A program made the position numbers and the translations under genes. The notes under the pieces were generated by a model. It was not told the origin of the DNA and did not search any database. It saw only the letters and a program-made list of their open reading frames with translations. Below, one piece after another: positions 24,154-45,578 of a DNA stretch of 64,000 nt (position 1 is its first letter; each line of letters begins with the position of its first letter). The DNA is from Bacteroidales bacterium (lineage in GTDB: Bacteria > Bacteroidota > Bacteroidia > Bacteroidales > UBA932). The stretch spans positions 62,001-126,000 of the forward strand of contig JAKSJN010000004.1 of NCBI GenBank assembly GCA_024402135.1, in the 5' to 3' direction.

Positions 24154-24187
24154 GGCCGCAAGTTCCGGCAAGAAAACATATCTTCCA

Positions 24188-24237
24188 GTAAAAAATCTAC
24201 AAATCGTGTTTTTTACTTTGTGCGATATGTTTTTTAC
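24188..24237 (-). promoter_or_regulatory. Repeated GTTTTTTAC motifs upstream of the left rpn gene
   Basis: GTTTTTTAC occurs at 24208-24216 and 24229-24237 (21-bp period), and a near-inverse GTAAAAAAT at 24188-24196. A similar trio lies upstream of the right copy. No good TAnnTTTG is seen, so this set may hold the promoter or a regulator site. Confidence 0.4.
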
Positions 24238-24406
24238 CAAAGTGGCGCGGAGGTTAAGATCCTCTCACGTTCTAAGCAAGACCATGCTCTGCGTTACAGT
24301 TTGTTCAATTGGCTAATATACAATAGAATAAATAATGTATTTGTTAGTGATATTTGTTGTTTTGTATCCAAAACGAATCAAAAAACATCCGAAAGAGGTA
24401 GAATAG

Positions 24407-24478: not shown

Positions 24479-26137
24479 ATGAGACCACTTTCCCTTATAC
24501 TCATTCTCCTTGTATTTTCATGCTCCTCTCCGGTCATGAAGCAGTTGGAGGAGATAGACTCGCATCTTGCGGACAAACCAGAAGAAGCCCTGTCACTTCT
24601 AGAGGAGATGAAGGACAATCCTGCAATCAAATCCGGTAAGGATAGACGTTCCATTGCAAAGCACTCGCTTCTCTATGTGATTGCGATGGATAAATGTTAC
24701 ATTGATACGGCGGGGCTGTCTGTGATACAACCGGCAGTCGATTACTATGCCAGGCATGGAAACACGTCCGACAGGAAGAGTATGCATTACTACTATGGTC
24801 GTGTCTTGGAACATGCGAAAGATTACCAGAATGCCATATTGACGTTTGAGAAGGCTCTTTCACTGTCGGAAACGGATGATTACTATTTCAATGGTCTAAC
24901 CTATTCTGCGATAGGAAGATTGTTCGTGCGGTCTCATAATGACAAAGAGGCGTTGGAGTATACCAAGAAGGCCTATGATTCATTTGCGACATTAGGACAT
25001 AAGGGAAACATGAGAGCAACAAAATATTCGCTCGCTCTAATAATGCATAACCTTAGAGACTTTGAGGCAGCTGATTCTCTCTTGAGAGAAGTGATAGGAG
25101 GAATCGACTCTCTTCAGTACAGGAGATATGCTGCGTCTCAATTTGCACGGAATCTCATGTATTGCCAACCACCGCGATTGGGTGAGACTGTTGAAGTGTA
25201 TGGGAGGATGCTGGATTTGGGCATTCCGCTAGATGCAGAGGATAAGGCCTGTTATGCCTATGCCCTCCTACTGGAAAATGACAAGAGCCGTGCGAGACAG
25301 TTGTTGACAGAGGTTGGAGAAATCCCATCTGATTATAAAGCTCAGCATTGGAGGAGATTGGCGGCAGTCCATGAAGGAGATTATGAGCTTGCACATATTC
25401 TGATAGAGAAGATACGCTCATACGAAGACGTATATGTCAAGGAAAAGCTGGAGCAATCCCTCTTCAAGACGCAAAGTGACAATGCCAGACTTATTGCAGA
25501 AGGAGCCGTTCAAAAACGCCGTCTCGCAATTATAACAGCGGCTCTTGTTTCATTGTTATTCATCCTGATAGCCGTAATGGTTGGAATCATTGCAGCAAGA
25601 AAACGACGGGAATCAGATATTGAGATAAAGCGGCTCATATCCGCAGCGGAAGAATCCACCCGCATGCTTTCAGATATGGAAAAAGAAATGACGTTGACAA
25701 GGGAACAGCAAGAAGAAGTACTGTCACAGCTGCGTACGTCATATATTTCTCTATTCAGGAAACAGTTTGAACAGATCAGCAAGGCATTTGATCCGAACAA
25801 TCTAGTAAACAGCAACGAAATACATAAGCGATTGTACAAGTGTGTTGATGACTTGCTTGTATCATTATCTGAACCTTCCTCGCTAAAGGTTCTTGAAGGA
25901 ATGATAGATTCCTGCTTGTCTGGCATCATCACATCAATCCGAATGGACTTCCCGAAAATGACTGACGATGACATCAGATTTTTATGCTACCTGATCATGG
26001 GCTTCGACAATACATCCATTTCTGTTCTCATGAATATCTCGCGTGAGAATGTCCGGGTCAAGAGACATAGGCTGAAAAACAAAATCATATCTTACGAAAA
26101 TGGAAAGTATATGGATTATCTACCTTGCTTTTTGTAG
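24479..26137 (+). CDS. Membrane-bound TPR regulator with C-terminal HTH
   Basis: A 552-residue one-protein sensor-regulator of a type common in Bacteroidales. A lipoprotein-like signal (MRPLSLILILLVFSC) is followed by TPR-type helices (about 20-335; ALSLLEEM, MHYYYGRVLEHAKDYQNAILTFEKAL, AIGRLFVRSHNDKEALEYTKKAYD). One membrane helix (about 347-370; IITAALVSLLFILIAVMVGIIAA), a coiled coil (KRRESDIEIKRLISAAEEST) and a cytoplasmic C-terminal domain follow. The domain ends in a LuxR/NarL-like HTH (MTDDDIRFLCYLIMGFDNTSISVLMNISRENVRVKRHRLKNKI). The TPRs would face the periplasm. It is the first gene inside the island and shares its promoter architecture with the next gene, so autoregulation and control of the peptide operon are likely (inference). 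Confidence 0.85.
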   Translation: MRPLSLILILLVFSCSSPVMKQLEEIDSHLADKPEEALSLLEEMKDNPAIKSGKDRRSIAKHSLLYVIAMDKCYIDTAGLSVIQPAVDYYARHGNTSDRKSMHYYYGRVLEHAKDYQNAILTFEKALSLSETDDYYFNGLTYSAIGRLFVRSHNDKEALEYTKKAYDSFATLGHKGNMRATKYSLALIMHNLRDFEAADSLLREVIGGIDSLQYRRYAASQFARNLMYCQPPRLGETVEVYGRMLDLGIPLDAEDKACYAYALLLENDKSRARQLLTEVGEIPSDYKAQHWRRLAAVHEGDYELAHILIEKIRSYEDVYVKEKLEQSLFKTQSDNARLIAEGAVQKRRLAIITAALVSLLFILIAVMVGIIAARKRRESDIEIKRLISAAEESTRMLSDMEKEMTLTREQQEEVLSQLRTSYISLFRKQFEQISKAFDPNNLVNSNEIHKRLYKCVDDLLVSLSEPSSLKVLEGMIDSCLSGIITSIRMDFPKMTDDDIRFLCYLIMGFDNTSISVLMNISRENVRVKRHRLKNKIISYENGKYMDYLPCFL

Positions 26138-26769: not shown

Positions 26770-26934
26770 CTAAGATAGGTAGGGACGTCTTCTGAATTCT
26801 GTTTGGTCCTGTATATAAAGCCCATTGCTCAACGGAAATCGTATAATAACAGAGTAGAGACTCTTATGTCATTATTCATTCATACGCTGTTTGACAGAAA
26901 GGATATGATAGAGTCTAATTCTCAATAATTGCGA

Positions 26935-27813
26935 ATGGTATTTAGAGGATTGGGAAGAGCCATATTAGGTATTACTTTTATCTTTTCAGGTCTGTTGAAA
27001 GGGCTTGATCCATATGGTTTATCTTTGAAGATAGATGAGTATCTTCAAGTTTATGGAATTGGTCCCTCATCCGCTTGTGCTGACATTCTGTCAATATTTT
27101 TATGTGGGCTAGAAATGCTGCTAGGTTCCATGCTGCTTCTTGGCCTGATGAAGCCTTTTCCTATACTGGGCATTCTTTCAATGCTTTCTTTTTTCACTGT
27201 CTTAACAGCATTATCGACTTTCATCCCTCAATACCGAATAGAGGAGTGTGGGTGTTTTGGAAACCTGTTTCCAATGTCCTCTGAGAAGAGTTTGTTCAAA
27301 AATGGAGTCCTGATTGTAATAGCTGCGCTATACCTATTTTCAGAGCGTAACATAACATGTGCGAATTGCAACAATTTTCTTCTTGAAGCATTTACATTAG
27401 TACTTGTTGTGTCCATATCCTTTGGTATTCCTGTGTATGGAACTTTGCAACAATCCATATTAGACACAGGTGGCTATAAGATAGGAGTTGATGTCAAATC
27501 CATGCCTACATTTCGTATAGTTGACAACCAGTACAGAGATATCACAGATACTGTCACCAAGGCATCCAACTTCATTATTCTTGTTCAAAAGCAATCTTTT
27601 ACGACGGAAGAACGTAAAAGGGTAAGCCATATCAGTCATAACAAAGGGCCTCTCGTCGTCCTCCGTTATGAAGCATGCGACACAATACCAGGATTACCTA
27701 ATTATGTTTCTAACCCAAACCTTCTAAAGTCTCTAATACGTAGCAGGCATAATGCTGTAATTGAAATGAGTAACGGAACCATTCAAAAGAAAAAACTCTT
27801 GCATGGATATTAA
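26935..27813 (+). CDS. MauE/DoxX-type redox-associated membrane protein
   Basis: Integral membrane protein of 292 residues. The first about 165 residues form four to five helices with the DoxX/MauE pattern (ILGITFIFSGLLKGLDPYGLSLKIDEYL; GLEMLLGSMLLLG). The conserved ECGCFGNLFP loop (Cys105, Cys107) and a CxxC at 142-145 (TCANCNNF) are well placed for passing disulfides. The last about 120 residues are periplasmic and resemble a degenerate thioredoxin fold. MauE-type proteins support disulfide formation in methylamine dehydrogenase. Here the likely clients are the Cys-rich peptides of the operon (inference). The ATG at 26935 is preferred over an in-frame TTG at 26929. The end overlaps the next gene by 11 nt. 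Confidence 0.82.
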   Translation: MVFRGLGRAILGITFIFSGLLKGLDPYGLSLKIDEYLQVYGIGPSSACADILSIFLCGLEMLLGSMLLLGLMKPFPILGILSMLSFFTVLTALSTFIPQYRIEECGCFGNLFPMSSEKSLFKNGVLIVIAALYLFSERNITCANCNNFLLEAFTLVLVVSISFGIPVYGTLQQSILDTGGYKIGVDVKSMPTFRIVDNQYRDITDTVTKASNFIILVQKQSFTTEERKRVSHISHNKGPLVVLRYEACDTIPGLPNYVSNPNLLKSLIRSRHNAVIEMSNGTIQKKKLLHGY

Positions 27814-28372
27814 TATTAAATTAAGCATACGGCATATATCAATAAAAATGATTCTATGTTATCTCGTTTTGGCCATGGCATGTTCTTGCCAGAACAGTAG
27901 GTTCAAGACGAAGTACCTAAATTTCGTCAGGCATGAAATTAACTTACCGGACAGCTTAACTGAGGTAATGAACGGTGAGGTTTTCCCTTACTATCTTGAT
28001 GGTTCTCGCCCAAAGTTGATTATTTATAATGACAGTACGGCGTGCTCTTCTTGCCGTATCAATCACTTGCCTGAGTACGACAAACTATTTCATTTGGCAG
28101 AAGATTCAGGATTATTCGATGTCGTAATTCTATTCTGTCCGAAGCCAGAGGAATATGATAAAGTAATAAGGGACATAAGACTGTCCGCATCCGATCATAG
28201 CGTGTTTGTCGATAGAGAAGGTTCCTTTGCAAGACTAAATCAACATATTCCCTCGGATGAACGTTTCCATGTATTCTTATTAAACAAAGACAGACTTCCA
28301 GCCTTTGTTGGAAATCCTTTGGATTCGGATAGACTATGGGAGATCTTTACAGAAACAATTTTAAATCAATAA
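27803..28372 (+). CDS. Thioredoxin-fold lipoprotein with CxxC
   Basis: A 189-residue exported protein. A hydrophobic N-terminus ends in a cysteine-rich lipobox-like stretch (ILCYLVLAMACSCQNS). The domain reads PKLIIYNDSTACSSCRINHLPEYDKLFHL, with the redox pair Cys81-Cys84 after a beta strand, as in TlpA/ResA-like proteins. The later segment SVFVDREGSFARLNQHIPSDERFHVFLLNKDRLPAFVGNP fits the rest of a thioredoxin fold. It overlaps the MauE-like gene by 11 nt, so the two are probably made together as a membrane oxidase and its soluble partner. Whether it oxidises, reduces or isomerises cannot be told. Confidence 0.8.
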   Translation: MDINIKLSIRHISIKMILCYLVLAMACSCQNSRFKTKYLNFVRHEINLPDSLTEVMNGEVFPYYLDGSRPKLIIYNDSTACSSCRINHLPEYDKLFHLAEDSGLFDVVILFCPKPEEYDKVIRDIRLSASDHSVFVDREGSFARLNQHIPSDERFHVFLLNKDRLPAFVGNPLDSDRLWEIFTETILNQ

Positions 28373-28382
28373 ATCTTTGTAT

Positions 28383-28667
28383 ATGACAATTATACGCTCT
28401 AACACCACATGGATTTGTGTTATTTGCGCATGTCTTGCATCTATGGTAGTTTTATCAAAAAGAACACTTGAAGAACAATTAGGACAACTGTTCGCCAACT
28501 ATGAAGCCCTATCTCAGACTGAAGGAGCTGTCATTTCCTGTTCTGCAGGACGATGTGGAAAATGTTTCTACGAAAAGACAGCGTTTCCCTATTATAGGTG
28601 CATTTGGTCTGGTATCCCATCTGATAATTGCAGTTGCGATAAATGGGGTTATACTCTAATGCCATAA
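28383..28667 (+). CDS. NVEALA-type Cys-rich small peptide 1
   Basis: Peptide of 94 residues: an N-terminal membrane/leader helix (about 8-25, TTWICVICACLASMVVL), then LFANYEALSQTE (residues 37-47), a variant of the NVEAL core, then a mature part with six cysteines (53, 58, 61, 73, 83, 85) that includes CGKC. NVEALA proteins are short Bacteroidales exports of unknown function, found next to propeller lipoproteins. The Cys spacing differs from that of the other three peptides, so this is the divergent member. The start is set at the ATG 28383 rather than an in-frame TTG two codons upstream. It follows the thioredoxin-like gene by 10 nt. Confidence 0.78.
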   Translation: MTIIRSNTTWICVICACLASMVVLSKRTLEEQLGQLFANYEALSQTEGAVISCSAGRCGKCFYEKTAFPYYRCIWSGIPSDNCSCDKWGYTLMP

Positions 28668-28702
28668 TTTCCTCGAGCGAGTATTTTTCTAAATGACACT
28701 AT

Positions 28703-29851
28703 ATGGCGCATAAAGGGGTAATTAGTCACATTCTCATCTTGTCTTTACTATTTGTGATGGTAAGCTGTCACAAGAAACAGAATGCTCCGACTATCATTAT
28801 ACCGGTCGATATCAACGAGAACCTTCAAAAAGAGGTCTCAATATATGATATATGTTCGGAAATCCACGTAATTGGCTTAGGTACGACACAGCCAATCAGT
28901 AATGATGTATATTCAGGTTCTACTTGGATGGATTGCGATGGAGAATATTTTTATATCCTGGACGAGAACTCCATGACCTTACATAAATATGACATGGATG
29001 GCCAATTAGTGTCTTTTGCTAACAAAGTCGGACGTGGACCAGGTGAGTATACTATGGCATGCCAGATTCATTACAATATGGATCTTGGCTTGATTGAAGT
29101 TCTCAACCCTATGGGCAAGATAATGAGGTATACCCGTGATTCACTTGATTTCCATTCAGAATTGGGCTATATAGGCAAAGGTCCGCTCTCTTCATATAAT
29201 TACCTCCAATTGGGGAACAACTACATAATTTATTCATTCCGCGAGGATGATAAAATCTGGTTACTGAACTCTGAACTCGAGGAAATCAGTTCTTTTGCGT
29301 ATCAACCTCCGATATATCTAAAGGACTATCTTACTGCGAGATCGCAGTTATTTACCCAAGATGGGCAGCCGTATGTTTATCGCACATATGATGGTGCGAT
29401 AGAACATATTGACGTCACAAAGGGAAGAGTCACGCCTTATATTGAGTGGGATTTCGGTGGTTTTCAGGCCAAATTGAAAGATATTCCTACGGATAATTCT
29501 GCTCGAGACTATGGTAGTTTTATGATGGATTATTCGATTCATAAGCTATCTCCGTTTATTGACATAAAGGCCAGGTTTGGAAAGATCTATGCTATGATAT
29601 TATTTAATGGAGGAAAGATTTACACGTTTATATATGACCTTGAAAAAAGGTCGTCCCTTATTTTTGAGAAGACTAAAGAAGGAATGAGTTTCTTTCCCGA
29701 AGTATTCGTGGACGAGTTCATGTATAAATACGTTGATAGTGCCAACCTCCCATCTTTTGTCTCACGTGAATTATTGGATTCGGAATCAAAAAAAGAATAC
29801 GATAAGATAATTGCAAACAAAAGCTCTGCAATACTAAAATACAAGATGTAG
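28703..29851 (+). CDS. Six-bladed beta-propeller lipoprotein 1
   Basis: Exported lipoprotein of 382 residues (MAHKGVISHILILSLLFVMVSC). Repeats are of the six-bladed propeller type found beside NVEALA peptides: SGSTWMDCDGEYFYILDENSMTLHKYDMDGQLVSFANKVGRGPGEYTMACQ is one complete blade with the signature GRGPGEY. Such propellers usually form rigid binding platforms. It lies 35 nt after peptide 1 and 44 nt before peptide 2, so each propeller in the operon stands beside a peptide gene. A receptor, immunity or docking role for that peptide is plausible but inferred only from position. Confidence 0.85.
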   Translation: MAHKGVISHILILSLLFVMVSCHKKQNAPTIIIPVDINENLQKEVSIYDICSEIHVIGLGTTQPISNDVYSGSTWMDCDGEYFYILDENSMTLHKYDMDGQLVSFANKVGRGPGEYTMACQIHYNMDLGLIEVLNPMGKIMRYTRDSLDFHSELGYIGKGPLSSYNYLQLGNNYIIYSFREDDKIWLLNSELEEISSFAYQPPIYLKDYLTARSQLFTQDGQPYVYRTYDGAIEHIDVTKGRVTPYIEWDFGGFQAKLKDIPTDNSARDYGSFMMDYSIHKLSPFIDIKARFGKIYAMILFNGGKIYTFIYDLEKRSSLIFEKTKEGMSFFPEVFVDEFMYKYVDSANLPSFVSRELLDSESKKEYDKIIANKSSAILKYKM

Positions 29852-29895
29852 AGCGTTTTCAATAATTACGGTTTAAATAAAAATCTTTTCAATTT

Positions 29896-30168
29896 ATGAG
29901 TAAAACAAAATTAATTACCGCTGTTAGCGGCTTGGTGTTTTCACTATCGCTGTCATTCCTTGTTTACGTAATGAACGCAAATTCCAAAGAAAGCAGTTAT
30001 GAAGCTAATATTGATGCTCTTGCTTCGATAGAATGGCCTTGGCAGAAGAATCATGACTGTTATGATTCGATATTTGCGGCTCCTGGGATGCAGGTGTATT
30101 ATTGCCCAGAGTGTAGATATATTAATGGTTGTGGAGATCCTGACACTTTGAACAAATGTTACAAATAG
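29896..30168 (+). CDS. NVEALA-type Cys-rich small peptide 2
   Basis: Peptide of 90 residues with a leader helix (about 5-25; KLITAVSGLVFSLSLSFLVYV) and the core YEANIDALASIE (ANIDALA at 37-43). Five cysteines follow (55, 70, 73, 79, 88). C55, C70, C73 and C88 give C-x14-C-x2-C-x14-C, the same frame as peptides 3 and 4. The 3' end overlaps the next propeller gene by 13 nt. Secretion is near certain; the function is unknown. Confidence 0.85.
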   Translation: MSKTKLITAVSGLVFSLSLSFLVYVMNANSKESSYEANIDALASIEWPWQKNHDCYDSIFAAPGMQVYYCPECRYINGCGDPDTLNKCYK

Positions 30169-31235
30169 TTAGATACTCTCCTTTTTGGGTGACAATGGCT
30201 CTTGTTTGTGGCTGCTCATCCGAACAATCTCCTGAATTAATATTTGAGGATGTTACAGTTGTGTCTGAAACACCCTATGATGTTCATGTTGGGGAAACGC
30301 AGAAGATTGAGCTTGCCACGATCGGTTGTACTGACTTTACAGTCAAGAATGATAAACTGCTGGTTACAACCAGCAACAAGGAGGGGCTGGTAGATGTCTA
30401 CAATTGGCCGGAAATGGAATTCAAGGGTAGTTTTATTCAAATAGGTAACGGGCCACTTGAAGTCTATAATCAATTATTCACTAATGATTTCAGCTATTAT
30501 ACACAGGATGACGACCTTCATGTAAACTTTTATGATGGCTATACCAGTGCGATAGATTGGAATGTAGACGAGTCTGTGAGAAACCAGAAGATTTCAATGG
30601 TCAAAAGCAAAATCAATTTACCAGTTGAGGATGGCGGTGTCATATCGTATTCATATCTTGGAGATAATGATTGCCTATACAGACATATTTCGGACGATGC
30701 CACCTCTCAGATACGTGTGTTGAGTTTAGCAGGCGGCGAATCGTCCAACGAATATATTGATCATTTGAATTCTGTTTCGATCCCGAAGATAAAAGATTCG
30801 TTCCTGTTTAACATCATGTCGACTTATACAAGAGTAAACAAAGAACGGAATCTTGTTGTAGAAGTACCATTGTTCATGAATCACATCAACATCTACGGTA
30901 TCAGAGGGAAATCTTTCGCCAAGTCTATTCGTATCGGAGAAAAGGTAGAGTCTGTCAAGAAACTATTTAACGAAGGTGCCACAAGCATGCAACTTGTCTT
31001 TTATGATGCAAGAGCCTATGATGATTTCTTCGGTGTTGTTTACAAGGACAAGTATGATTTGAAAGCCCTTCCAGTCATTTATTTCTTTAACTGGGATGGT
31101 TACCCGTTGTGTTCGGTGAAAATGGATCGAAACATAAACTTTTTTGACATTGATTTTGTTCATGAAAAATTGCTTGTGTTTGATTCTACTACAGAGTCAT
31201 TATTCGCATGTGATTTCAGACTGCCAAACAACTGA
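30156..31235 (+). CDS. BF3164-type / six-bladed propeller lipoprotein 2
   Basis: Lipoprotein of up to 359 residues. The first Met (30156) overlaps peptide 2; an internal Met (30195) would give the shorter signal MALVCGCSS. The lipobox region is clear either way. Propeller-like repeats include LLVTTSNKEGLVDVYNWPEMEFKGSFIQIGNGPLEVYNQ and, near the end, LPVIYFFNWDGYPLCSVKMDRNINFFDIDFVHEKLLVF. The last pattern is shared with propeller 3 (EVHLFSWNGAPIAKITLPEPALYFDIDIEERQLYVV). Its stop and the next start overlap as TGATG. Proposed as an outer-envelope partner of the peptides, by context. Confidence 0.82.
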   Translation: MLQIVRYSPFWVTMALVCGCSSEQSPELIFEDVTVVSETPYDVHVGETQKIELATIGCTDFTVKNDKLLVTTSNKEGLVDVYNWPEMEFKGSFIQIGNGPLEVYNQLFTNDFSYYTQDDDLHVNFYDGYTSAIDWNVDESVRNQKISMVKSKINLPVEDGGVISYSYLGDNDCLYRHISDDATSQIRVLSLAGGESSNEYIDHLNSVSIPKIKDSFLFNIMSTYTRVNKERNLVVEVPLFMNHINIYGIRGKSFAKSIRIGEKVESVKKLFNEGATSMQLVFYDARAYDDFFGVVYKDKYDLKALPVIYFFNWDGYPLCSVKMDRNINFFDIDFVHEKLLVFDSTTESLFACDFRLPNN

Positions 31236-32512
31236 TGATATTTAGTTTGGTGATAATCATCTTTAACGTTATAGCCCTTTACGAATCAGTAACAGGGCTA
31301 TTTCAGGTTATGGGGCTTGCTAGTTCTCGCAATTCAATCTTCTTACTGACAGGCACGTTCACCAATCCCGGTCCCTATGGCGGCTGCTTGGCGATTCTTA
31401 TCGCCGTACTGGCCGCATATGCACTTAAACACAGAAAAACGACAGGATTGTTGAATAGAACTTTGCTGTGTATTTCGCTTGTTTCATGTACGCTTTGTTT
31501 CATTGTTCTTCCGGCTACTATGAGTAGGGCCGCGTGGCTTGGTATAGCCGTAGCGATGGTCATTTTGGTTTTTCACGAGTTTGATCCCAGTTTGTGGATT
31601 GCACAAAACCGGGGCTGGACAACAGCCATTGTTGTCGCTCTGGCGATAATTATGACGGCGTCTTTCTACATGAAAAAAGATTCGGCGTTGGGCAGGCTTC
31701 ATATATGGCATATGGAACTGCTTGCGATAGCAGACAATCCGTGGCATGGGTATGGAGCAGGCAGTGTATTAGGCGTTTATGGTAAAACGCAAGCTGCCTT
31801 TTTTTCGGAGAAGCAGAGACATGAAAAAGTTATTCAGACTGCGGGGTGTCCGGAATATGCTTTCAATGAATACCTTAAAGTCGGGGTTGAGCATGGTGTT
31901 CCAGCCATGCTTGGCTTAATAGTAGGAGTCTTGACATTGACCTCTATTCTTCTTCATTTCCAATCACCTTTTGCATATGGCGTCATCGTACTTGCTGTAT
32001 TTGCCTTCTTCTCATACCCCTCAGAATGCATACATTTCAAGACCGACGCAGAGAAGCATTGGGATAATGTACGCTACCTCAGCACGATGGAGCTTTATGA
32101 AGACGCGGTGGAAGAGTATCGTCCATTATACTCGCGACTCAAAGGTAATTATCGCTTTCTATATGATTATGGGTACGCATTGCATAAAACAGAGCGTTAT
32201 GATGAAAGTACTATCATTCTCACTGAAGGACTCAGGATTTCTTCTGATCCAATGTTCAGCAACATCATAGGAAAGAATTATGAGGCATTGGGCGAGTACG
32301 AAGTTGCAGAACGATGGTATCTTCATGCCCATTATATGGTACCATGCAGGTTGTATCCTCTTGTTCTGTTAATGGAGTTAAAAAACAAGACAGGAGATTC
32401 AGACGCAGCCCTTGACTATGCAGAAATTATATTGTCCATGCCGTACAATAAACGTCTATCCAGCATGACCGACCTTCGTAAAAGGGCGGAAGCGGTTTTG
32501 AATAAAGAGTAA
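31235..32512 (+). CDS. O-antigen ligase-like (Wzy_C) membrane protein with C-terminal TPRs
   Basis: A 425-residue protein. The first about 260 residues contain seven or so membrane helices and the Wzy_C loop pattern: FTNPGPYGGCLAILIAVLAAY, then TMSRAAWLGI, and a periplasmic loop RLHIWHMELLAIADNPWHGYGAGSV...NEYLKVGVEHGVPAMLGL. These are hallmarks of O-antigen ligases and polymerases, which transfer lipid-linked glycans. The last about 150 residues are TPR-like helices (ELYEDAVEEYRPLYSRLKGNYRFLYDYGYALHKTERYDESTIIL). It is short at the N-terminus compared with full ligases. The presence of a glycan-transfer fold in a peptide-export operon is unexpected; it could glycosylate or anchor the exported product (inference). 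Confidence 0.75.
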   Translation: MIFSLVIIIFNVIALYESVTGLFQVMGLASSRNSIFLLTGTFTNPGPYGGCLAILIAVLAAYALKHRKTTGLLNRTLLCISLVSCTLCFIVLPATMSRAAWLGIAVAMVILVFHEFDPSLWIAQNRGWTTAIVVALAIIMTASFYMKKDSALGRLHIWHMELLAIADNPWHGYGAGSVLGVYGKTQAAFFSEKQRHEKVIQTAGCPEYAFNEYLKVGVEHGVPAMLGLIVGVLTLTSILLHFQSPFAYGVIVLAVFAFFSYPSECIHFKTDAEKHWDNVRYLSTMELYEDAVEEYRPLYSRLKGNYRFLYDYGYALHKTERYDESTIILTEGLRISSDPMFSNIIGKNYEALGEYEVAERWYLHAHYMVPCRLYPLVLLMELKNKTGDSDAALDYAEIILSMPYNKRLSSMTDLRKRAEAVLNKE

Positions 32513-32533
32513 TGGATAAATGAATCTTGATGT

Positions 32534-35503: not shown

Positions 35504-35767
35504 ATGGATAAGCAGCGATTCGTCTCTTTATTGATATTCATTTTATCAGTTTTTTTATGCTCTTTCGTTCTATTCAGTAGCAAAGATAAGACTGCTCTGT
35601 ATGAGGCTAATATTGAGTCTCTATGTGAAGTGGAACACGGTAGTTACGTACGTTGTTATAAATCAATAATTTCGGATCCCGCTGATACAGAGTTGTATTG
35701 TGGTACCTGTACTGAGATACCAGGACGGATCCACGGGGGTATGAGTTACTGCAAACCAAATAAGTAA
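35504..35767 (+). CDS. NVEALA-type Cys-rich small peptide 4
   Basis: Peptide of 87 residues with a leader helix (about 6-26; FVSLLIFILSVFLCSFVLF) and the core YEANIESLCEVE (ANIESLC at 35-41). Cysteines are at 41, 51, 66, 69 and 83; the last four give C-x14-C-x2-C-x13-C. It is clearly a tandem duplicate of peptide 3, 15 nt downstream, but has diverged at most other positions. Only 4 nt separate it from propeller 3. Confidence 0.86.
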   Translation: MDKQRFVSLLIFILSVFLCSFVLFSSKDKTALYEANIESLCEVEHGSYVRCYKSIISDPADTELYCGTCTEIPGRIHGGMSYCKPNK

Positions 35768-38354: not shown

Positions 38355-38355
38355 T

Positions 38356-39438: not shown

Positions 39439-39447
39439 GATGATCCG

Positions 39448-42400
39448 ATGTTGAAGACACTGTTAGACAGGCCTATTATGGTCACAATGATCGCCCTGGT
39501 GGCAATCGTACTAGGAGTGGTCAGTATGAAACTTCTTCCGATATCTCTTATTCCGGAAGTGGACGTGCCATATATTACTGTTCAGGTTGAGGCTCCTGGG
39601 ATGTCGGCCAGGGAGCTTGATGAAAGTATCATCACGCCTCTTCGTCATCAGCTCGTCCAAGTATCCGGGCTTGAGGATATCAGCACGGAGTCGAAAGACG
39701 GTGGTTCGACCATAACGTTGGCTTTCTCACATGGCACAGACATAAGTTACAGTTTCATTGAAGTCAATGAAAAGATAGACCGTTCTATGTCATACCTATC
39801 AGGAATAGAACGTCCCAAGGTACAGAAATTCCGTGCTTCAGACATCCCAGCCTTCTATCTGGATATGACTCTCTCTGAGGGCTCGTCAAGCACGTTCACA
39901 GACATGAGCCGTTTTGCCCAGGATGTTGTGAGCCGCCGCATCGAACAACTGGATGAAGTGGCGATGGTAGACATCAGTGGCCTTGTTCGGGAGGAAGTAT
40001 TCATATCCCCTGATTCTGAGAAGTTGAAACAGGTCGGCATGACGCTGGCAGACTTCGAAAACGTCATACGAGGGTCCAACATCCAGCTTGGAATTCTGTC
40101 CATCCATGACGGGGAATACAGCTACAATGTGCGTTTTTTATCCAATGTAGGCTCAGAAGATGACATCCGAGATATATGGTTCTCCCATAACGGCCGTTTG
40201 CTTCAGGTGGGCGATGTCGCAGATGTATCTGTACGCCCGGCCAAGAGGACGGGTCTAGTCCGGTCCAACGGCCAGGAGGCATTAAGCCTCGCGGTCATCA
40301 AACAGAGCGAGGCCAGAATGGCTGATCTTAAATCAGGAATAGGTTCGTTGTTGGAGCAGTTCTCTGCTGATTATCCTGATGTCAGATTCGAGCTGACACG
40401 TGACCAGACCGAGTTGCTACAGTTTTCCATCAACAACCTAATACGCAATATCATAATGGCAATCATCTTAGCCTGTATGGTCATATTCTTTTTCATGAAA
40501 GACTTCCGGTCTCCTGCCCTTGTCTCTCTGACCATACCTGTAGCACTGGTGATTTCCATGAACGCCTTTCACCTCCTCGGACTTTCCATCAATATCATAT
40601 CCCTGTCCGGTCTGCTGCTCGGTGTAGGAATGATGGTGGACAACTCCATCATTCTTGTCGACAATATCACAGACCGTTGGCTCCGATACGGCGACCTTAA
40701 GAACGCTGTCGTTGATGGCACACGTGAGGTTGCTGCTCCTATGCTCAGCTCTGTCCTGACCACCTGTGCAGTATTCATCCCTCTGGTATTCACTAGCGGC
40801 ATCGCGGGCTCCCTTTTTTACGATCAAGCGATGACTATCACCGTAGTCCTTCTGGTCTCATATTTTGTCACGGTAACCGTCATCCCCGTCTATTATTGGT
40901 GTCTGTACAAAGGTATGACACGTTTCCGGGAGAATCCGTTGCTTGCAAGGCTTTCAGTGCAGGAAGCTCTCTTCAGATGGGACAACCGCGTGATTGGACA
41001 TATGTTAAATCATCCGGGACGTGCCTGGAGTATACTCGTTCTGTCGCTTATCGGCTTGGCAATATGCTTTGCCTTCATACCCAAGGAAAGACTACCTGAA
41101 ATGAGGTATTCGGAGAGCATTCTCAAGGTGGATTGGAATAGTCATGTCTCCGTTGAGGAGAATGAACGCCGCACGGCTATGCTTGAAAGTTGTGTCTGTT
41201 CTGAAGCCCTACATACGACATCTTATGTGGGAAGTCAGCAGTTTCTACTCAGCCACAGTGATGATCAGTCATCCTCAGAGTCTTCTATCTACATGAAATT
41301 TGCTGATCAGCAATCGCTTCTGGCTGCCCAGGCGAGGCTTCAAGAACTGATATCTAAGGAATATCCTGATGCTATCGTCGGTTTCAAGGCATCAGGTAAT
41401 ATCTTCGATATGGTTTTCGCCGACCGTGAGAACATACTGATAGCACGATTACGTCCATCCAACCGTCCGGATATTGATCCTGGATTACTGGATGGCACAA
41501 TAAGGGCAATTAGAGAAGCTCTCCCAGATTGTGGCATTGACCATGCTCCGATGAAGACGGACGTGTTGTTCGTCGCCGATCCTGAGAGAATGGCTTTGTA
41601 TGGTGTGACTTACAGCCAATTAGATGCAGTATTACGTAATGCACTGAATGAGAATAATCTGTTTGATATAGTCCAAGGTGCCCGCACCCTTCCGGTAGTC
41701 ACAGGAAACGGCCACGATGACCTGAATACGGTCCTATCTAGAACCGTTGTTGAGGCAGATGGTTTCGACATTCCTGTTTCAGAAGTGATGCGGCAGACTT
41801 TCATTCATGATTTGAAATCTATCATGTCCGGTCCTGATGGCAACTACTATCCTCTAGATATGGACATGCCGGGTTCAAAAGTCCGTGAGACGATAACATC
41901 GGTGTCATCGATTGTGAGATCCATGGGTAACTTTGACGTAACATTTGCCGGTTCTTGGTTCTCAAGCCGTAAAATGGTCAAGGAACTCTCTATTTTGCTG
42001 ATAATCGCTATTCTCCTACTGTATCTTATCCTGGCGTCTCAATTTGAGTCTCTCTCCCAACCTCTGATAATTCTTTCTGAGGTTGTGATCGACATATTTG
42101 TATCGCTACTTTCTCTGTGGCTGCTCGGCATTTCCATCAACATCATGTCCATGATCGGCCTTATCGTGATATGCGGTATCGTCGTCAACGATTCCATCTT
42201 GAAGATAGATACAATCAATAGAATGATACGTGACGGTAAGGAACTTCAAGATGCCATCTTTCTTGCCGGCAAGCGTCGTCTTAAGGCTATTGTCATGACT
42301 TCACTTACCACGGTCCTGTCTGTCCTACCGTTCCTGTCACGCGGCAGTATGGGTGCAGATCTACAGTATCCTATGTCAGTAGTGATTATTGTCGGCATGT

Positions 42401-42474
42401 CAGTAGGCACTTTAGTCAGCCTCTTCGTGCTCCCGGCGATGTATTATTCAATCCATAGGAAACAGACCAGATGA
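39448..42474 (+). CDS. RND efflux permease, subunit A
   Basis: Inner-membrane transporter of 1008 residues with the 12-helix, two-porter-loop RND layout (MLKTLLDRPIMVTMIALVAIVLGVVSMKLLPISLIPEVDVPYITVQVEAPG). In TM4 the proton-relay pair reads Asp398-Asn399 (GMMVDNSIILVDN), against Asp-Asp in AcrB. The TM10 lysine position is Asn (GIVVNDSILKID). This pattern is common in non-AcrB RND pumps. It is followed with a 4-nt ATGA overlap by a second, dissimilar RND gene, so a heteromeric permease is likely. Confidence 0.93.
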   Translation: MLKTLLDRPIMVTMIALVAIVLGVVSMKLLPISLIPEVDVPYITVQVEAPGMSARELDESIITPLRHQLVQVSGLEDISTESKDGGSTITLAFSHGTDISYSFIEVNEKIDRSMSYLSGIERPKVQKFRASDIPAFYLDMTLSEGSSSTFTDMSRFAQDVVSRRIEQLDEVAMVDISGLVREEVFISPDSEKLKQVGMTLADFENVIRGSNIQLGILSIHDGEYSYNVRFLSNVGSEDDIRDIWFSHNGRLLQVGDVADVSVRPAKRTGLVRSNGQEALSLAVIKQSEARMADLKSGIGSLLEQFSADYPDVRFELTRDQTELLQFSINNLIRNIIMAIILACMVIFFFMKDFRSPALVSLTIPVALVISMNAFHLLGLSINIISLSGLLLGVGMMVDNSIILVDNITDRWLRYGDLKNAVVDGTREVAAPMLSSVLTTCAVFIPLVFTSGIAGSLFYDQAMTITVVLLVSYFVTVTVIPVYYWCLYKGMTRFRENPLLARLSVQEALFRWDNRVIGHMLNHPGRAWSILVLSLIGLAICFAFIPKERLPEMRYSESILKVDWNSHVSVEENERRTAMLESCVCSEALHTTSYVGSQQFLLSHSDDQSSSESSIYMKFADQQSLLAAQARLQELISKEYPDAIVGFKASGNIFDMVFADRENILIARLRPSNRPDIDPGLLDGTIRAIREALPDCGIDHAPMKTDVLFVADPERMALYGVTYSQLDAVLRNALNENNLFDIVQGARTLPVVTGNGHDDLNTVLSRTVVEADGFDIPVSEVMRQTFIHDLKSIMSGPDGNYYPLDMDMPGSKVRETITSVSSIVRSMGNFDVTFAGSWFSSRKMVKELSILLIIAILLLYLILASQFESLSQPLIILSEVVIDIFVSLLSLWLLGISINIMSMIGLIVICGIVVNDSILKIDTINRMIRDGKELQDAIFLAGKRRLKAIVMTSLTTVLSVLPFLSRGSMGADLQYPMSVVIIVGMSVGTLVSLFVLPAMYYSIHRKQTR

Positions 42475-45400
42475 CCCATAGTCTTTCTTCGTACTCTGTA
42501 TTGATTGTGATGGTTGCGTTGTCCATAATAGGCATTGCTACCATCGGTATGTTAAATATTCAGTACATGCCGGAGACGGAGGAACGTAGCATCACCGTGA
42601 CATACTCGATGGGGACTGCCTCTGCTGAGATCGTCGAGTCGGAAGCTACAGCTCTGATAGAGGGAGTACTTTCCGGCACCAGTAGATGCTGCAGAACAAG
42701 ATCTGTGTCTACTAGGGGAGGAGGATCTGTAATAGCCAGGTTCTCTAAAGGTACCGACATGACGGCAGCACGCTTCGATGTGGCATCTGCAATCAGGAAC
42801 ATCAGTGGAAGTTTGCCCAAGGGGATGACCTACCCGGAGATCTCAATGGGGGCAGGAGGCAAGATTACCACAGTGTTGGTCTACAATATCAGGAGTGAAC
42901 TTCCTTCCCGTGAAATCGAACGCTATGTGACCTCGTATATCATGACGCCGATATCATCAATCAAAGGAGTTGCCAGTGTCAGACTGGCCGGTGTCACCCC
43001 GTATGAGGTTGAAATAGAGTTTGATGCAGATAAAGCATCATTACATGGGATAAGTGCTGATGATATTGCATCTGCGTTTAAGGACTCATTCGATGACCAT
43101 GTGCTCGGTATGACTCAAGTAGGGGACAGGCTCATAACGGTCAGAATGTCGGGGACCTCAAAAGAGGATTTCGGTGCTATTCCTATCAAAAACTGCAATG
43201 GGATGATGGTTTTTCTCCGTGATATTGCTTGTTGGCATTATCAAGAGGCACTTCCGGAGTCATATTACCGCATTAATGGTTTGAATACCATAAATATGGC
43301 TGTCAGTGTGACAACCAATTCCAATATCATTTCCACTGCTGATACCATCAAAGAAGAGATGTTGCGTTTGCAGGAATCTTTCCCGCCAGAAATCAGTGTA
43401 GGTATTGATTACGATGCATCCGAATATATGAGTTCGGAACTTGAAAAGATATATCTCCGGACTGGATTTTGCCTGCTCATACTTCTGCTCTTCGTGTTCT
43501 TCTTCAGCAGGTCCTGGCGGTACGTACTCATTGCTATCATCACCATAGCGGTCAACCTGTTGAGCGCTGTAGTGATATACAATATTGTAGGACTCCAAGT
43601 GCATATTTATACGCTTGCCGGCATCACCGTATCGTTGGGAATCATCATTGACACATCGATAATGATGATTGACCACTATAGTCGTTTCCATAACAAGAAG
43701 GCATTCGGGTCTCTGGTATGTGCTGTTGCAACTACCATCGTCGCCGTGCTGCCTGTTATGCTGCTGCCTGAAGAAGAGAGATTAAATCTTACGGATTTCA
43801 TATGGGTAATCGCCATAAATCTCGTATTGTCCCTCGTTGTGTCATATTTTTTTGCTCCTGCTCTAATTGATTATATTCCGGTTGAGTATGGAAAAGGAGG
43901 CCAACGATTGGTAGGATTTCGATGTCGAGCCAAGCTACAGAGAATATACAGAGACTACATCGACTGGGGAGTGAAACACAGATGGATGTATGTCTTCATT
44001 ATTGTAGCGATGTTCGGCATCCCGACATGTCTTCTTCCAAACGCCAAGGAGTACGACAGCAAGGAAGATCTGTCAATATTAGACAATATACTGAAGAGGA
44101 TGGTCACATGGGGTCCGTACAGGGACAACAGAGAAACTGTCGACAATGTATTAGGAACATCATTCGCCCTCTTTAACAAAGTTTTGAACCGATCGAACTT
44201 CTATCGCGAGCCTGAAAAGGCTGTGCTCTATATAAGTGCCGGCATGCTCGAAGGTAGTTCTGTACACCAACTAAACGAGGTTATCAAGTCTATGGAGAAT
44301 TATCTTGCAGGCTTCAAGGAGATATCCACATTTCGTACAGAAGTGAATGACTATGATGACGCCCGTATCGCTGTAGAGTTCAAACCAGAATATGAACATA
44401 CAGCTACACCCATAGAGATAAAGGGATTGGTGACAGGTATGGCCGTCAATTTTGGTGGTGCAAATTGGTCAATAAGTGGCCTCGACAATAACTATTTTTC
44501 TAATCATGTCGTACTTGACAGGAAGAGCTACGGTATCGAGCTCCATGGGTACAATTACAGACAGTTGTTGAAGTTTGGCGAGGTGTTAGTGAACAAATTG
44601 TCAGAAAACAAACGAGTGATTGGACCGGAAATCCGTGGTGGGAACGGTGATAGACCGTCCACAGAATTCAACATGAAATATGATTTCGAAAAGCTTGCAG
44701 CATACGGTATCAGTCCGTACGAATATTATTCGGCCATTGAGTCAAAGCTGTTCGAACGCTCCGTTGGTTCTGTGGTGTTGGAAGGAGCCCCCACTCCTGT
44801 AATGCTCCGTTCTTCTGCCCGTGACGAATATGACCTTTGGCATGCACTTAATGATCCAGTCGCAGCTGATAGTACACTCATTTCGTTAAGGAATGTTGGC
44901 GGCATAGAGAAACGCCGCACAGGCATTGATATCGTTAAGGACAACCAGTCATATGAAATCAATGTAATGTTTGATGTTATTGGGAATTACGAGATCACGA
45001 AACAGATAGTTTCAGAGGCAGTGGATTATATGAACGGATTTGTGCTCCCCGTCGGCTACAAGGCTGAAGGACTAGGTGGCGCCCGGAATTATGGGCAGAA
45101 AAGCAACTATGCATGGCTTATATTACTGATAATACTTGCCATCTATGTAATGCTATGCATAGCCTTCGAGTCTATGAAGTATCCTTTGGCCGTGATAAGT
45201 ATGATTCCAGTGTCATTTGTGGGGGTATTATTGACTTTCGGATTCTCCAGATTGTCTTTCGATCAGGGAGGCTTCGCCGCCTTTGTGATGCTCTGCGGAA
45301 TAACCGTAAATGCAGGAATATATCTTGTTCATGCGTCCAGAAAAACGAACATAAAACACCGGAATGTAATAGACATCAGAGCATATCTTTCTGCATTTAA

Positions 45401-45578
45401 ACAAAAGATTGCCCCAATTTTACTAACTGTTCTTTCAACTGTCCTTGGACTTCTTCCGTTCTTGATAGATGGGCCAACTGAGGTTTTCTGGTTTGACTTT
45501 GCAATTGGAACAGTTTCAGGTCTGATCATGTCAATAATTGCTGTTATTTTCGTTCTCCCGATATTTGTGTGCACCTAA
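42471..45578 (+). CDS. RND efflux permease, subunit B
   Basis: Second RND permease of 1035 residues (SYSVLIVMVALSIIGIATIGMLNIQYMPETEERSITVTYSMG). It is clearly different in sequence from subunit A. TM4 reads GIIIDTSIMMIDHY, so only Asp394 is kept and the neighbour is Thr; TM10 reads GITVNAGIYLVHA. The product ends soon after TM12 (VIFVLPIFVCT), slightly short of most RND proteins. The IS remnant begins 125 nt later, so 3' erosion is conceivable, though the last helix is present. It is the last gene of the long operon. Confidence 0.9.
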   Translation: MTHSLSSYSVLIVMVALSIIGIATIGMLNIQYMPETEERSITVTYSMGTASAEIVESEATALIEGVLSGTSRCCRTRSVSTRGGGSVIARFSKGTDMTAARFDVASAIRNISGSLPKGMTYPEISMGAGGKITTVLVYNIRSELPSREIERYVTSYIMTPISSIKGVASVRLAGVTPYEVEIEFDADKASLHGISADDIASAFKDSFDDHVLGMTQVGDRLITVRMSGTSKEDFGAIPIKNCNGMMVFLRDIACWHYQEALPESYYRINGLNTINMAVSVTTNSNIISTADTIKEEMLRLQESFPPEISVGIDYDASEYMSSELEKIYLRTGFCLLILLLFVFFFSRSWRYVLIAIITIAVNLLSAVVIYNIVGLQVHIYTLAGITVSLGIIIDTSIMMIDHYSRFHNKKAFGSLVCAVATTIVAVLPVMLLPEEERLNLTDFIWVIAINLVLSLVVSYFFAPALIDYIPVEYGKGGQRLVGFRCRAKLQRIYRDYIDWGVKHRWMYVFIIVAMFGIPTCLLPNAKEYDSKEDLSILDNILKRMVTWGPYRDNRETVDNVLGTSFALFNKVLNRSNFYREPEKAVLYISAGMLEGSSVHQLNEVIKSMENYLAGFKEISTFRTEVNDYDDARIAVEFKPEYEHTATPIEIKGLVTGMAVNFGGANWSISGLDNNYFSNHVVLDRKSYGIELHGYNYRQLLKFGEVLVNKLSENKRVIGPEIRGGNGDRPSTEFNMKYDFEKLAAYGISPYEYYSAIESKLFERSVGSVVLEGAPTPVMLRSSARDEYDLWHALNDPVAADSTLISLRNVGGIEKRRTGIDIVKDNQSYEINVMFDVIGNYEITKQIVSEAVDYMNGFVLPVGYKAEGLGGARNYGQKSNYAWLILLIILAIYVMLCIAFESMKYPLAVISMIPVSFVGVLLTFGFSRLSFDQGGFAAFVMLCGITVNAGIYLVHASRKTNIKHRNVIDIRAYLSAFKQKIAPILLTVLSTVLGLLPFLIDGPTEVFWFDFAIGTVSGLIMSIIAVIFVLPIFVCT

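What the first reader, a model, noticed from the sequence alone, without database searches (positions are those of the whole stretch)
24154..45578. Self-contained Cys-rich peptide production and export island
A regulator and a 15-gene, nearly gapless operon combine four NVEALA-type peptides, a MauE-like membrane protein with a CxxC thioredoxin-fold lipoprotein, a dedicated signal peptidase I, a transglutaminase-like lipoprotein, a Wzy_C/TPR membrane protein, three propeller lipoproteins and a complete TolC/adaptor/two-RND exporter. Each step of a secretion pathway for small disulfide peptides is present: oxidation, cleavage, possible coupling, export and surface partners. I know of no experimental account of such a system.
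Basis: inference. Interest (0 to 1): 0.9.

Follow-up and report, generated by a model that had tools for sequence, protein, structure and literature searches.

The report
Secreted cysteine-rich peptide and partner system
A Bacteroidales bacterium carries a gene cluster, with relatives in many other Bacteroidota, that looks built to make, trim and export small cysteine-rich peptides, most of them encoded beside their own partner protein, much like a bacterial weapon-and-antidote or signal-and-receptor kit.

Summary
The genes are there as described (16 tightly packed genes, not 15, plus a regulator and a small secreted protein). The set is no chance assembly: related clusters combining peptides, propellers, signal peptidase, Wzy_C/TPR protein, transglutaminase-fold and thioredoxin-fold lipoproteins and a TolC-adaptor-RND-RND exporter recur in Bacteroides, Phocaeicola, Parabacteroides and on plasmids.

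The peptides are leader/core precursors: a Sec-anchor-like leader ending in a signal-peptidase-type A-L-A site ('NVEALA' box), then a hypervariable cysteine-rich core (even Cys number in 70 of 87). Within loci leaders average 60% identity, cores 22%.

New result: the core, hardly the leader, covaries with the propeller gene just downstream (r=0.40, 0 of 2000 permutations, also within loci; nine held-out plasmid pairs r=0.33, 1 of 5000). Each peptide probably has a cognate lipoprotein partner.

Best reading: two-step secreted disulfide peptides, bacteriocin-like, with propellers as immunity or receptor proteins. MauE is dispensable (1 of 80 loci). Cleavage, disulfides, RND export and biological role are inferred. 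Against: the exporter also occurs without detected peptides, the transglutaminase/Wzy_C pair also serves other clusters, and simple linkage of core and propeller is not excluded.

The parts
24479..26137 (+). Regulator: lipoprotein-like N terminus, TPR repeats, transmembrane segment, C-terminal HTH-like region
   Evidence: TPR_12 31.9 bits; partial match to BT3442 family NF053779 (63.5 bits, cut-off 940); homologues, some short, in the same loci as TGase in L057, L066, L080, L087, L110, L115, L137, L138 and plasmid L183
26352..26741 (+). Small secreted protein (129 aa) after the regulator; similar-looking small proteins follow the regulator in L057, L080, L087, L138, L183 (by eye)
   Evidence: No Pfam or NCBIfam match; positions
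26929..27813 (+). MauE/DoxX-like membrane protein; accessory, not part of the conserved set
   Evidence: MauE 59.8 bits, BT_3928 family 135.1 bits (cut-off 250); 1 of 80 loci
27803..28372 (+). Thioredoxin-fold-like lipoprotein with CSSC (fold judged by eye; no Pfam hit)
   Evidence: Sequence, no Pfam match; family keeps CxxC in 41 of 47
28377..28667 (+). Precursor peptide NV1; proposed site after ...NYEALS; core of 50 aa with 6 Cys, class 'VxC..C....C..YxCxW(S/T)G..sdnC'
   Evidence: PF14055 18.6 bits, below cut-off; directly upstream of PROP1; not a hit of the leader model
28703..29851 (+). Propeller lipoprotein PROP1, proposed partner of NV1
   Evidence: DUF5128 51.9 bits; of its five closest relatives here (L047, L068, L076, L089, L057) four lie just after NV1-class peptides (by eye), L076 after none detected
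29896..30168 (+). Precursor peptide NV2; proposed site after ...NIDALA; core with 5 Cys including CPEC
   Evidence: leader model E 4e-8; PF14055 16.7 bits, below cut-off
30156..31235 (+). Propeller lipoprotein PROP2, proposed partner of NV2
   Evidence: Aligned in A4; overlaps NV2 by 13 bases
31235..32512 (+). Wzy_C (O-antigen-ligase-like) membrane protein with TPR tail
   Evidence: Wzy_C 70.0 bits; 52 of 80 loci; no His at the 'FN' position in 62 of 62
32534..34435 (+). Transglutaminase-fold lipoprotein with discoidin-like C-terminal region
   Evidence: Transglut_core 21.3 bits, F5_F8_type_C 24.2, both below cut-off; Cys and His kept in 98 of 98; model pLDDT 78, TGL-fold matches at low TM
34290..35213 (+). 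Dedicated signal peptidase I (true start probably near 34371-34392, judged from alignment A2)
   Evidence: Peptidase_S26 104.2 bits; catalytic Ser and Lys in 45 of 45; one other S26 gene in the genome
35234..35488 (+). Precursor peptide NV3; proposed site after ...NVDALS; core with 4 Cys including CGTC
   Evidence: leader model E 3e-7; no PF14055 hit
35504..35767 (+). Precursor peptide NV4; proposed site after ...NIESLC; core with 4 Cys including CGTC
   Evidence: leader model E 4e-8; no PF14055 hit
35772..36839 (+). Propeller lipoprotein PROP3, proposed partner of NV3/NV4
   Evidence: AlphaFold2 model pLDDT 81, NHL-type propeller; lipobox Cys24 invariant in 21 of 21
36873..38354 (+). TolC-type outer-membrane channel
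   Evidence: OEP 106.2 bits
38329..39438 (+). RND periplasmic adaptor
   Evidence: RND_mfp 147.4 bits, above cut-off 94.9
39448..42474 (+). RND permease 1
   Evidence: ACR_tran 531.0 bits
42471..45578 (+). RND permease 2, divergent
   Evidence: ACR_tran 369.2 bits
23197..24240 (-). Flanking PDDEXK_2 transposase-family gene (not part of the pathway)
   Evidence: 151.9 bits; 300-nt direct repeat with the other flank, 85%
46486..47412 (-). Flanking PDDEXK_2 transposase-family gene (not part of the pathway)
   Evidence: 156.2 bits

Best explanation
The cluster makes and exports several small disulfide-rich peptides, bacteriocin-like in organisation. Each precursor is inserted through Sec by an N-terminal hydrophobic anchor; a conserved ~20-residue stretch beyond the anchor ends in A-L-A/S/C ('NVEALA'), where the dedicated signal peptidase I is proposed to cut and free the hypervariable core into the periplasm (inferred; the site obeys the -3,-1 rule but lies unusually far from the membrane, which would explain why a dedicated enzyme is kept). 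The CxxC thioredoxin-fold lipoprotein helps form or proof-read the disulfides (inferred). The transglutaminase-fold lipoprotein and the Wzy_C/TPR protein act on the secreted peptide in a way shared with other Bacteroidota peptide clusters (association shown, chemistry unknown). TolC-adaptor-RND-RND carries the folded peptide out of the periplasm (inferred by analogy). Most peptides have their own partner, the propeller lipoprotein encoded just downstream, which binds that core: most likely as self-immunity or, second, as a receptor (covariation shown; binding and role inferred).
For: Co-inheritance: 80 loci; peptide-anchored, 43 of 77 within 20 kb, expected 2.3; 15 of 18 NVEALA genomes carry the TGase versus 18 of 63 others; of 36 loci with leader peptides 36 have propellers, 25 SPase, 17 RND; plasmid copies in P. 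vulgatus, P. dorei, P. massiliensis. Leader/core: 59 same-locus pairs, leader identity 0.60 versus core 0.22, leader higher in 56; Cys 8.3% in cores versus 0.66% in leaders; even Cys number 70 of 87 (binomial 4e-9); in 5 pairs chosen for near-identical leaders DNA identity falls from 0.90-0.96 to 0.56-0.70 at the boundary. Cleavage box: -1 position A69 S8 T6 C2 G1 of 86, -3 position A81 of 87; the four window peptides read ALS, ALA, ALS, SLC; Mucilaginibacter peptides with a different leader have AQA before YC in three of four, STA in the fourth. SPase Ser/Lys 45 of 45, TGase Cys/His 98 of 98. Cognate partner: core-propeller r=0.40 over 2371 between-locus pairs of 70 units, 0 of 2000 free and 0 of 2000 within-locus permutations; leader-propeller 0.098, 2 of 2000 free, 145 of 2000 within locus; with the 59 units whose core boundary comes from the leader model r=0.455, 0 of 2000 free, 2 of 2000 within locus, leader 0.109, 4 free, 696 within; unchanged after controlling for TGase similarity (0.425), while the leader follows the TGase (0.156) more than the core does (0.065); nine held-out plasmid units r=0.33, 1 of 5000, and the two with a clear core match both had the matching propeller ranked 1 of 70. 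Bacteriocin context: a fulvocin C-related protein (NF033852, 111.9 bits, cut-off 35) is encoded two genes after the TGase on a B. finegoldii plasmid. Analogy: E. coli STII goes by Sec, Dsb disulfides, then MacAB-TolC (PMC5985334, passages).
Against: No secretion, cleavage or activity has been measured. The exporter occurs with propellers and no peptide found here in L149, L150, L151, L154, and without either in L144, L148, L152, L155, L157, some on cut contigs. 26 of 80 TGase loci have no SPase, propeller, RND or peptide in the stretch held; 34 of 77 NVEALA matches are not within 20 kb of a TGase; 19 of 36 peptide loci show no RND in the stretch held. 30 of 100 peptides have no propeller assigned to them (the first of a tandem pair, such as NV3, counts among these), some precede a Trx-fold lipoprotein instead. 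The covariation could arise if core and propeller simply move together as a cassette; the control meant to exclude this (upstream propeller) had only 17 units and neither direction was significant. The Spearman coefficient of the core-propeller comparison is near zero (0.044): the signal sits in the minority of similar pairs. Seven of nine held-out units gave no clear match. In 11 of the 70 units the core was simply the last 50 residues. The cleavage-box count starts from motif-selected seeds and is partly circular.
Confidence: 0.55

Rival explanations
1. Peptide signalling: the cores are pheromones or cell-density signals and the propeller lipoproteins are their cognate receptors, with the TPR/HTH membrane regulator reading the result.
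For: Same covariation; a membrane TPR/HTH regulator and small secreted protein lie in the cluster here and in L057 and L183, and in radical-SAM clusters L080, L087; several peptide-propeller pairs per strain.
Against: Six different peptides in one locus (L048, L183) is more like an arsenal than one signal; the regulator is found in only 7 of 80 loci; plasmid carriage and the fulvocin-related neighbour fit toxins better.
Confidence: 0.22
2. Surface structure or adhesin: peptides stay cell-bound, are crosslinked or ligated by the transglutaminase-fold and Wzy_C proteins and are displayed on propeller lipoproteins; hypervariability is antigenic.
For: TGase fold with conserved Cys/His; discoidin-like region (below cut-off); Wzy_C family includes ligases (recalled); lipoproteins nearby.
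Against: The His recalled as catalytic in O-antigen ligases is absent in 62 of 62; a TolC-RND exporter is not a display route that I know of; no sorting signal noticed.
Confidence: 0.13
3. Unrelated neighbours: a multidrug RND pump and envelope genes sit beside peptide genes by chance or simple linkage.
For: RND pumps of the same type also occur without peptides or propellers (L144, L148, L152, L155, L157); MauE is not conserved.
Against: Repeated association in different gene orders (TolC-MFP-RND-RND and MFP-RND-TolC-RND), in several genera and on a plasmid; of 25 loci with RND among the 80, 22 have propellers, 17 SPase and 17 peptides; 12 control loci have none of the markers except TolC (2) and adaptor (1).
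Confidence: 0.05
4. Metal or cofactor handling: the CxxC-bearing cores bind a metal in the periplasm and the RND pump is an HME-type metal exporter with propellers as chaperones.
For: Cores of the NV2-4 class carry C..CxxC..C patterns; permease 1 also matches CusA/CzcA models below cut-off; a table of iron-responsive genes lists BT0662, BT0664, BT0667 and BT0669 (O-antigen ligase family, propeller, SPase I, RND adaptor), but in opposite directions and with second-column values of 0.11-0.35, probably p values (PMC10434189, passages).
Against: Core classes have unrelated Cys spacings, and hypervariability of cores but not leaders is hard to explain for a chaperone.
Confidence: 0.05

Closest known systems
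NVEALA protein family (PF14055) and BF3164 / 6-bladed beta-propeller lipoproteins
   Same: Peptides of related loci score above the family cut-off (56.0 and 27.7 bits in L075, 39.9 in L065), and plasmid annotations name NVEALA genes next to BF3164 or propeller genes
   Different: The window's own four peptides are below the cut-off; Pfam's name gives no function, and no paper holding 'NVEALA' was found in the library searched
E. coli heat-stable enterotoxin II secretion (Sec, Dsb, MacAB-TolC)
   Same: Small disulfide peptide taken to the periplasm by Sec, oxidised there, ejected through TolC (PMC5985334, passages)
   Different: There the pump is of ABC type and also handles antibiotics; here an RND pair, a dedicated signal peptidase, a leader/core design and partner lipoproteins are encoded together
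Class II bacteriocins / microcins with immunity proteins (features recalled)
   Same: Conserved leader, hypervariable core, adjacent partner gene that covaries with the core, plasmid carriage of relatives
   Different: Leader is a membrane anchor ending in A-x-A, not a double-glycine leader; no ABC exporter among the 18 genes; activity untested
Fulvocin C-related proteins (NF033852)
   Same: One occurs two genes after the TGase, near O-antigen-ligase-family and TlpA-type genes, on a B. finegoldii plasmid
   Different: A 234-aa protein, not a leader/NVEALA peptide; not in the window
Radical SAM peptide (RiPP) clusters of Bacteroidota
   Same: Share the TGase-fold gene in L080, L087 and L181, the regulator in L080 and L087, a Wzy_C gene in L181 (the L181 maturase judged by eye)
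   Different: No radical SAM or other RiPP-modifying enzyme among the 18 window genes

Membership tests
PF14055 NVEALA | Score above curated cut-off (27 bits) | tested here: not met
   18.6 and 16.7 bits, two peptides without a hit; met by homologues in L065 and L075
Leader/core precursor peptide | Conserved leader with hypervariable core | tested here: met
   Leader 0.60 versus core 0.22 identity, leader higher in 56 of 59 same-locus pairs
Signal peptidase I substrate | Small residues at -3 and -1 | tested here: met
   -1 small in 86 of 86, -3 Ala in 81 of 87; partly circular because seeds were chosen by motif; of 17 hits found by the model alone 16 reach this column, all small at -1
Signal peptidase I substrate | Cleavage 3-7 residues after the hydrophobic segment (recalled rule) | tested here: not met
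   About 17-20 residues in the window peptides and leader model, counted by eye
Signal peptidase I (S26) | Catalytic Ser and Lys | tested here: met
   45 of 45
Bacteriocin with cognate immunity | Partner gene covaries with the peptide core | tested here: met
   linkage as the cause not excluded
Bacteriocin with cognate immunity | Killing of related strains and protection by the partner | not testable with these tools
   Needs culture
Classical RiPP | Dedicated modifying enzyme in the cluster | tested here: not met
   None recognised in 18 genes by Pfam/NCBIfam; TGase-fold and Wzy_C proteins could still modify
O-antigen ligase / O-oligosaccharyltransferase | Catalytic His of the HN motif (recalled) | tested here: not met
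   0 of 62 have His there (F54 Y4 L3 A1)
Transglutaminase-like superfamily | Cys-His-Asp triad and fold | tested here: inconclusive
   Cys, His 98 of 98; Asp column 61 of 98; fold matches with low TM
Tripartite RND exporter | TolC, adaptor, RND permease together | tested here: met
Tripartite RND exporter | Transports these peptides | not testable with these tools
   Association only

The most novel reading that the evidence does not exclude
A Bacteroidota-wide class of peptide weapons or signals, found in Bacteroides and Phocaeicola and on their plasmids: interchangeable cassettes of 'disulfide core + cognate propeller lipoprotein' are plugged behind one shared leader, and a common machine (dedicated signal peptidase cutting far from the membrane, transglutaminase-fold and Wzy_C processing pair, RND-TolC pump) secretes any of them in two steps; the propeller is a new family of immunity or receptor proteins.
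Probability: 0.42. Interest if true: 0.9.

Novelty: new variant of a known kind. Interest (0 to 1): 0.74.

Why it matters
If right, it gives a function to several orphan families of Bacteroidota (NVEALA peptides, BF3164/propeller lipoproteins, Wzy_C-TPR and transglutaminase-fold lipoproteins), adds RND pumps as dedicated peptide secretion machines, and names many candidate disulfide peptides with their likely partner proteins in tractable strains such as Phocaeicola vulgatus ATCC 8482. It makes directly testable how Bacteroidales compete or communicate.

Tried and rejected
MauE as a core component: rejected (1 of 80 loci; relatives in 111 of 119 family genomes). Peptides as classical RiPPs: no modifying enzyme recognised in the window cluster. 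Wzy_C protein as an ordinary O-antigen ligase: unlikely, the recalled catalytic His is absent. Clean insertion site: in 12 RNase R neighbourhoods of genus relatives no ORF matched a cluster gene by BLAST, but the crude gene calls recovered RNase R itself in only 9 of 12, two contigs end just after it, and gene order varies too much to show the empty site. Bacteroides-type promoter search: 1 match in the window, outside the cluster, chance expectation 0.63; sigma-70-like sites 63 against 50.4 (sd 7.5) and terminator-like 18 against 13.1 (sd 3.1) in shuffles, little above chance. Upstream-propeller control for cassette linkage: 17 units, r=0.092 downstream and 0.021 upstream, neither significant. 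Papers: NVEALA 0 papers, BF3164 1, seen in the listing only, other combinations nothing on such a system in the listings; the library holds open-licence papers only.

Rows dropped and limits: in the peptide and propeller analyses loci L082, L084, L102, L119, L121 (same contigs as L044, L047, L049, L053, L050), L136 and L160 were left out, and peptide candidates of L087, L128, L155 were discarded by eye as false. Because of this L084 and L102, which do hold peptides, are not in the peptide count of 36 of 80. L057/L159 and L048/L161 overlap, so the list of 34 'system loci' holds repeats. The 80 loci are what one search kept of 485 relatives; many contigs are cut short, so absences are upper bounds. 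Held-out test: nine units; the P. dorei plasmid was left out as carrying proteins with the same accessions as the P. vulgatus one, and one of the six P. massiliensis peptides because a Trx-fold gene, not a propeller, follows it. Checking this report I found that NV1 is not a leader-model hit and that 11 cores were set by length; I reran the covariation without those 11.

Full report
What is there. The window lies in a 2.6-Mb genome of 34 contigs. From 26929 to 45578 sixteen genes follow each other on the + strand with gaps of at most 44 bases; a TPR/HTH regulator and a small secreted protein lie just upstream. Two PDDEXK_2 transposase-family genes flank the whole, with a 300-nt direct repeat at 85%.

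Co-inheritance. Starting from the transglutaminase-fold protein (TGase), relatives occur in 23 of 119 genomes of the family, 2 of the 9 of the genus among them (genus members). A scan of named genomes found 485 relatives, 80 kept. With profiles built here, these 80 loci hold Wzy_C/TPR 52, propellers 45, SPase 36, leader peptides 36, Trx-fold lipoprotein 33, RND 25, adaptor 24, TolC 21; SPase with Wzy_C 33; SPase, Wzy_C and RND 17, of which 16 with propellers and 14 also with peptides; MauE 1; none of SPase, propeller, RND or peptide 26. Of the 25 RND loci 22 have propellers, 17 SPase, 17 peptides; of the 36 peptide loci 36 have propellers, 25 SPase, 17 RND (adjacency to a propeller was one way of finding peptides, so the first figure is partly built in). 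Twelve control loci of the same genus had none of the markers except TolC (2) and adaptor (1). Starting from the peptides avoids the bias of the TGase scan: in 81 genomes of one family of the same order 18 have PF14055 matches and 33 the TGase, 15 both (Fisher 4e-5), and 43 of 77 peptide matches lie within 20 kb of a TGase gene against 2.3 expected; in an order-wide draw of 148 genomes 5 have PF14055 matches, 19 the TGase, 4 both (Fisher 9e-4), and 12 of 20 matches are near. The PF14055 counts are lower bounds, since the model misses the window's own peptides.

The peptides. One search lists 87 candidates; a 45-column leader model gave 90 hits, including NV2, NV3 and NV4 but not NV1. Leaders are a hydrophobic segment, a polar linker and a conserved stretch ending N-V-E-A-L-A. 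The residue at the last position is A, S, T, C or G in 86 of 86, the one two before is A in 81 of 87: the -3,-1 pattern of signal peptidase I. The site lies some 17-20 residues beyond the hydrophobic segment, much further than in ordinary signal peptides (recalled rule). The counts are partly circular, but of the 17 sequences found by the model alone the 16 that reach this column also have a small residue at -1, and Mucilaginibacter peptides with a different leader have A-Q-A before the first Cys in three of four and S-T-A in the fourth. Cores hold 8.3% Cys against 0.66% in leaders; 70 of 87 have an even number (binomial 4e-9). Same-locus pairs share leaders (0.60) and not cores (0.22), leader higher in 56 of 59 pairs. 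In five pairs chosen for near-identical leaders DNA identity drops from 0.90-0.96 to 0.56-0.70 at the boundary.

Core and propeller belong together. Seventy peptide-propeller units from 43 loci gave r=0.400 between core similarity and propeller similarity over 2371 between-locus pairs; 0 of 2000 free permutations and 0 of 2000 permutations within loci (mean 0.206, sd 0.067) reached it; for leaders r=0.098, 2 of 2000 free and 145 of 2000 within loci. In 11 units the core was set as the last 50 residues; with the other 59 units r=0.455, 0 of 2000 free and 2 of 2000 within loci, and for leaders r=0.109, 4 and 696. The rank correlation is only 0.044, so the signal comes from the minority of recognisably similar pairs. 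It survives removing the four units of the most similar class (0.249, 0 of 2000), two near-duplicate loci as well (0.237, 0 of 2000) and controlling for TGase similarity (0.425); leaders follow the TGase (0.156, 0 of 2000) more than cores do (0.065, 22 of 2000). Nine units from plasmids not used before gave r=0.335 (1 of 5000); the two with a clear core match had the matching propeller at rank 1 of 70, the other seven ranks were 21, 52, 2, 7, 12, 49, 18. The window fits: of the five closest relatives of PROP1 four sit just after NV1-class peptides (L076 after none detected), and of the six closest of PROP3/PROP2 outside the window four sit after CxxC-class peptides (L095, L055, L129, L111; the second of L129 and L056 after none detected) (classes by eye). 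Cassette linkage remains possible; the upstream-propeller control was underpowered (17 units).

The enzymes. SPase Ser and Lys are kept in 45 of 45; the genome, 98% complete, has one other S26 gene. TGase Cys and His are kept in 98 of 98, the Asp column in 61 of 98; the model (pLDDT 78) matches the TGL fold, including a putative cysteine protease, 3isr, and factor XIII, all at low TM-scores, so protease and transglutaminase cannot be told apart. The Wzy_C protein lacks the His recalled as catalytic in 62 of 62. The Trx-fold lipoprotein keeps CxxC in 41 of 47. PROP3 is predicted as an NHL-like propeller (pLDDT 81, best match at TM 0.48) with a lipobox Cys invariant in 21 of 21.

Wider setting. 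The TGase/Wzy_C pair is not confined to these peptides: it occurs with Mucilaginibacter Cys peptides and a CGGC lipoprotein (L078), with a glycine-rich peptide and a MacB-type permease and adaptor (L120) and, on a B. finegoldii plasmid, with a fulvocin C-related protein; the TGase also with radical SAM maturases (L080, L087). Plasmids of P. vulgatus, P. dorei and P. massiliensis carry NVEALA-propeller pairs with SPase, O-antigen-ligase-type and TGase genes; that of P. massiliensis also the exporter, the regulator and six leader peptides, while no exporter gene is annotated in the stretches of the other two that I saw. This points to peptide secretion as the common theme and to mobile, bacteriocin-like cargo. 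Conversely the exporter occurs with propellers and no detected peptide in L149, L150, L151, L154, and without either in L144, L148, L152, L155, L157, some on cut contigs, which tells against an exclusive peptide role.

Mechanism. Proposed: Sec insertion; cut at A-x-A by the dedicated signal peptidase; oxidation helped by the CxxC lipoprotein; action of the TGase-fold and Wzy_C proteins (unknown); ejection from the periplasm through RND-TolC; recognition by the cognate propeller. Shown here: gene association, leader/core design, Cys enrichment, retained active-site residues, covariation. Inferred: every transport and chemical step, and the role. The nearest experimental parallel I know is enterotoxin STII, which uses Sec, Dsb and MacAB-TolC (PMC5985334, passages only). 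A published expression table lists, for B. thetaiotaomicron, BT0662 as O-antigen ligase family, BT0664 as propeller, BT0667 as signal peptidase I and BT0669 as RND adaptor (PMC10434189, passages only), so a model strain probably has the locus; I did not check its sequence. Ten searches of an open-licence library listed no paper describing such a system.

Verdict. New variant of a known kind; interest 0.74.

Noticed in passing
window 23197-24240 and 46486-47412: Two PDDEXK_2 transposase-family genes in the same orientation flank the cluster and share a 300-nt direct repeat at 85%; possible route of gain or loss.
   Followed up: partly
window 2885-2943 (-): SAM-II riboswitch, 62 bits against a gathering score of 44.
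   Followed up: no
L078:2612-3902: Mucilaginibacter dorajii: four Cys peptides with a different shared leader, near a CGGC lipoprotein, Wzy_C and TGase genes.
   Followed up: partly
L120:14771-19134: Glycine-rich 97-aa peptide near a MacB-type permease, adaptor, TGase and Wzy_C: the same processing pair with another exporter type.
   Followed up: partly
L080:2532-4152, L087:11909-13460, L181:3665-5023: Radical SAM/SPASM maturase (L080, L087) or similar-looking gene (L181, by eye) near a TGase, in L181 on an 18.8-kb mobilizable Muribaculaceae plasmid.
   Followed up: partly
L182:17461-18165: Fulvocin C-related protein in a TGase, TlpA and O-antigen-ligase-family cluster on a B. finegoldii plasmid.
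   Followed up: partly
L149, L150, L151, L154: Exporter with one to four large propellers (about 400-445 aa) upstream and no detected peptide.
   Followed up: no
L179:38968-42408: RloB, TIR and SIR2 genes, which look like a defence cluster, on the same P. vulgatus plasmid as the peptide cassettes.
   Followed up: no
window 53496-54758: Two tandem, similar genes that look like deoxynucleoside kinases (name recalled; sequence starts).
   Followed up: no
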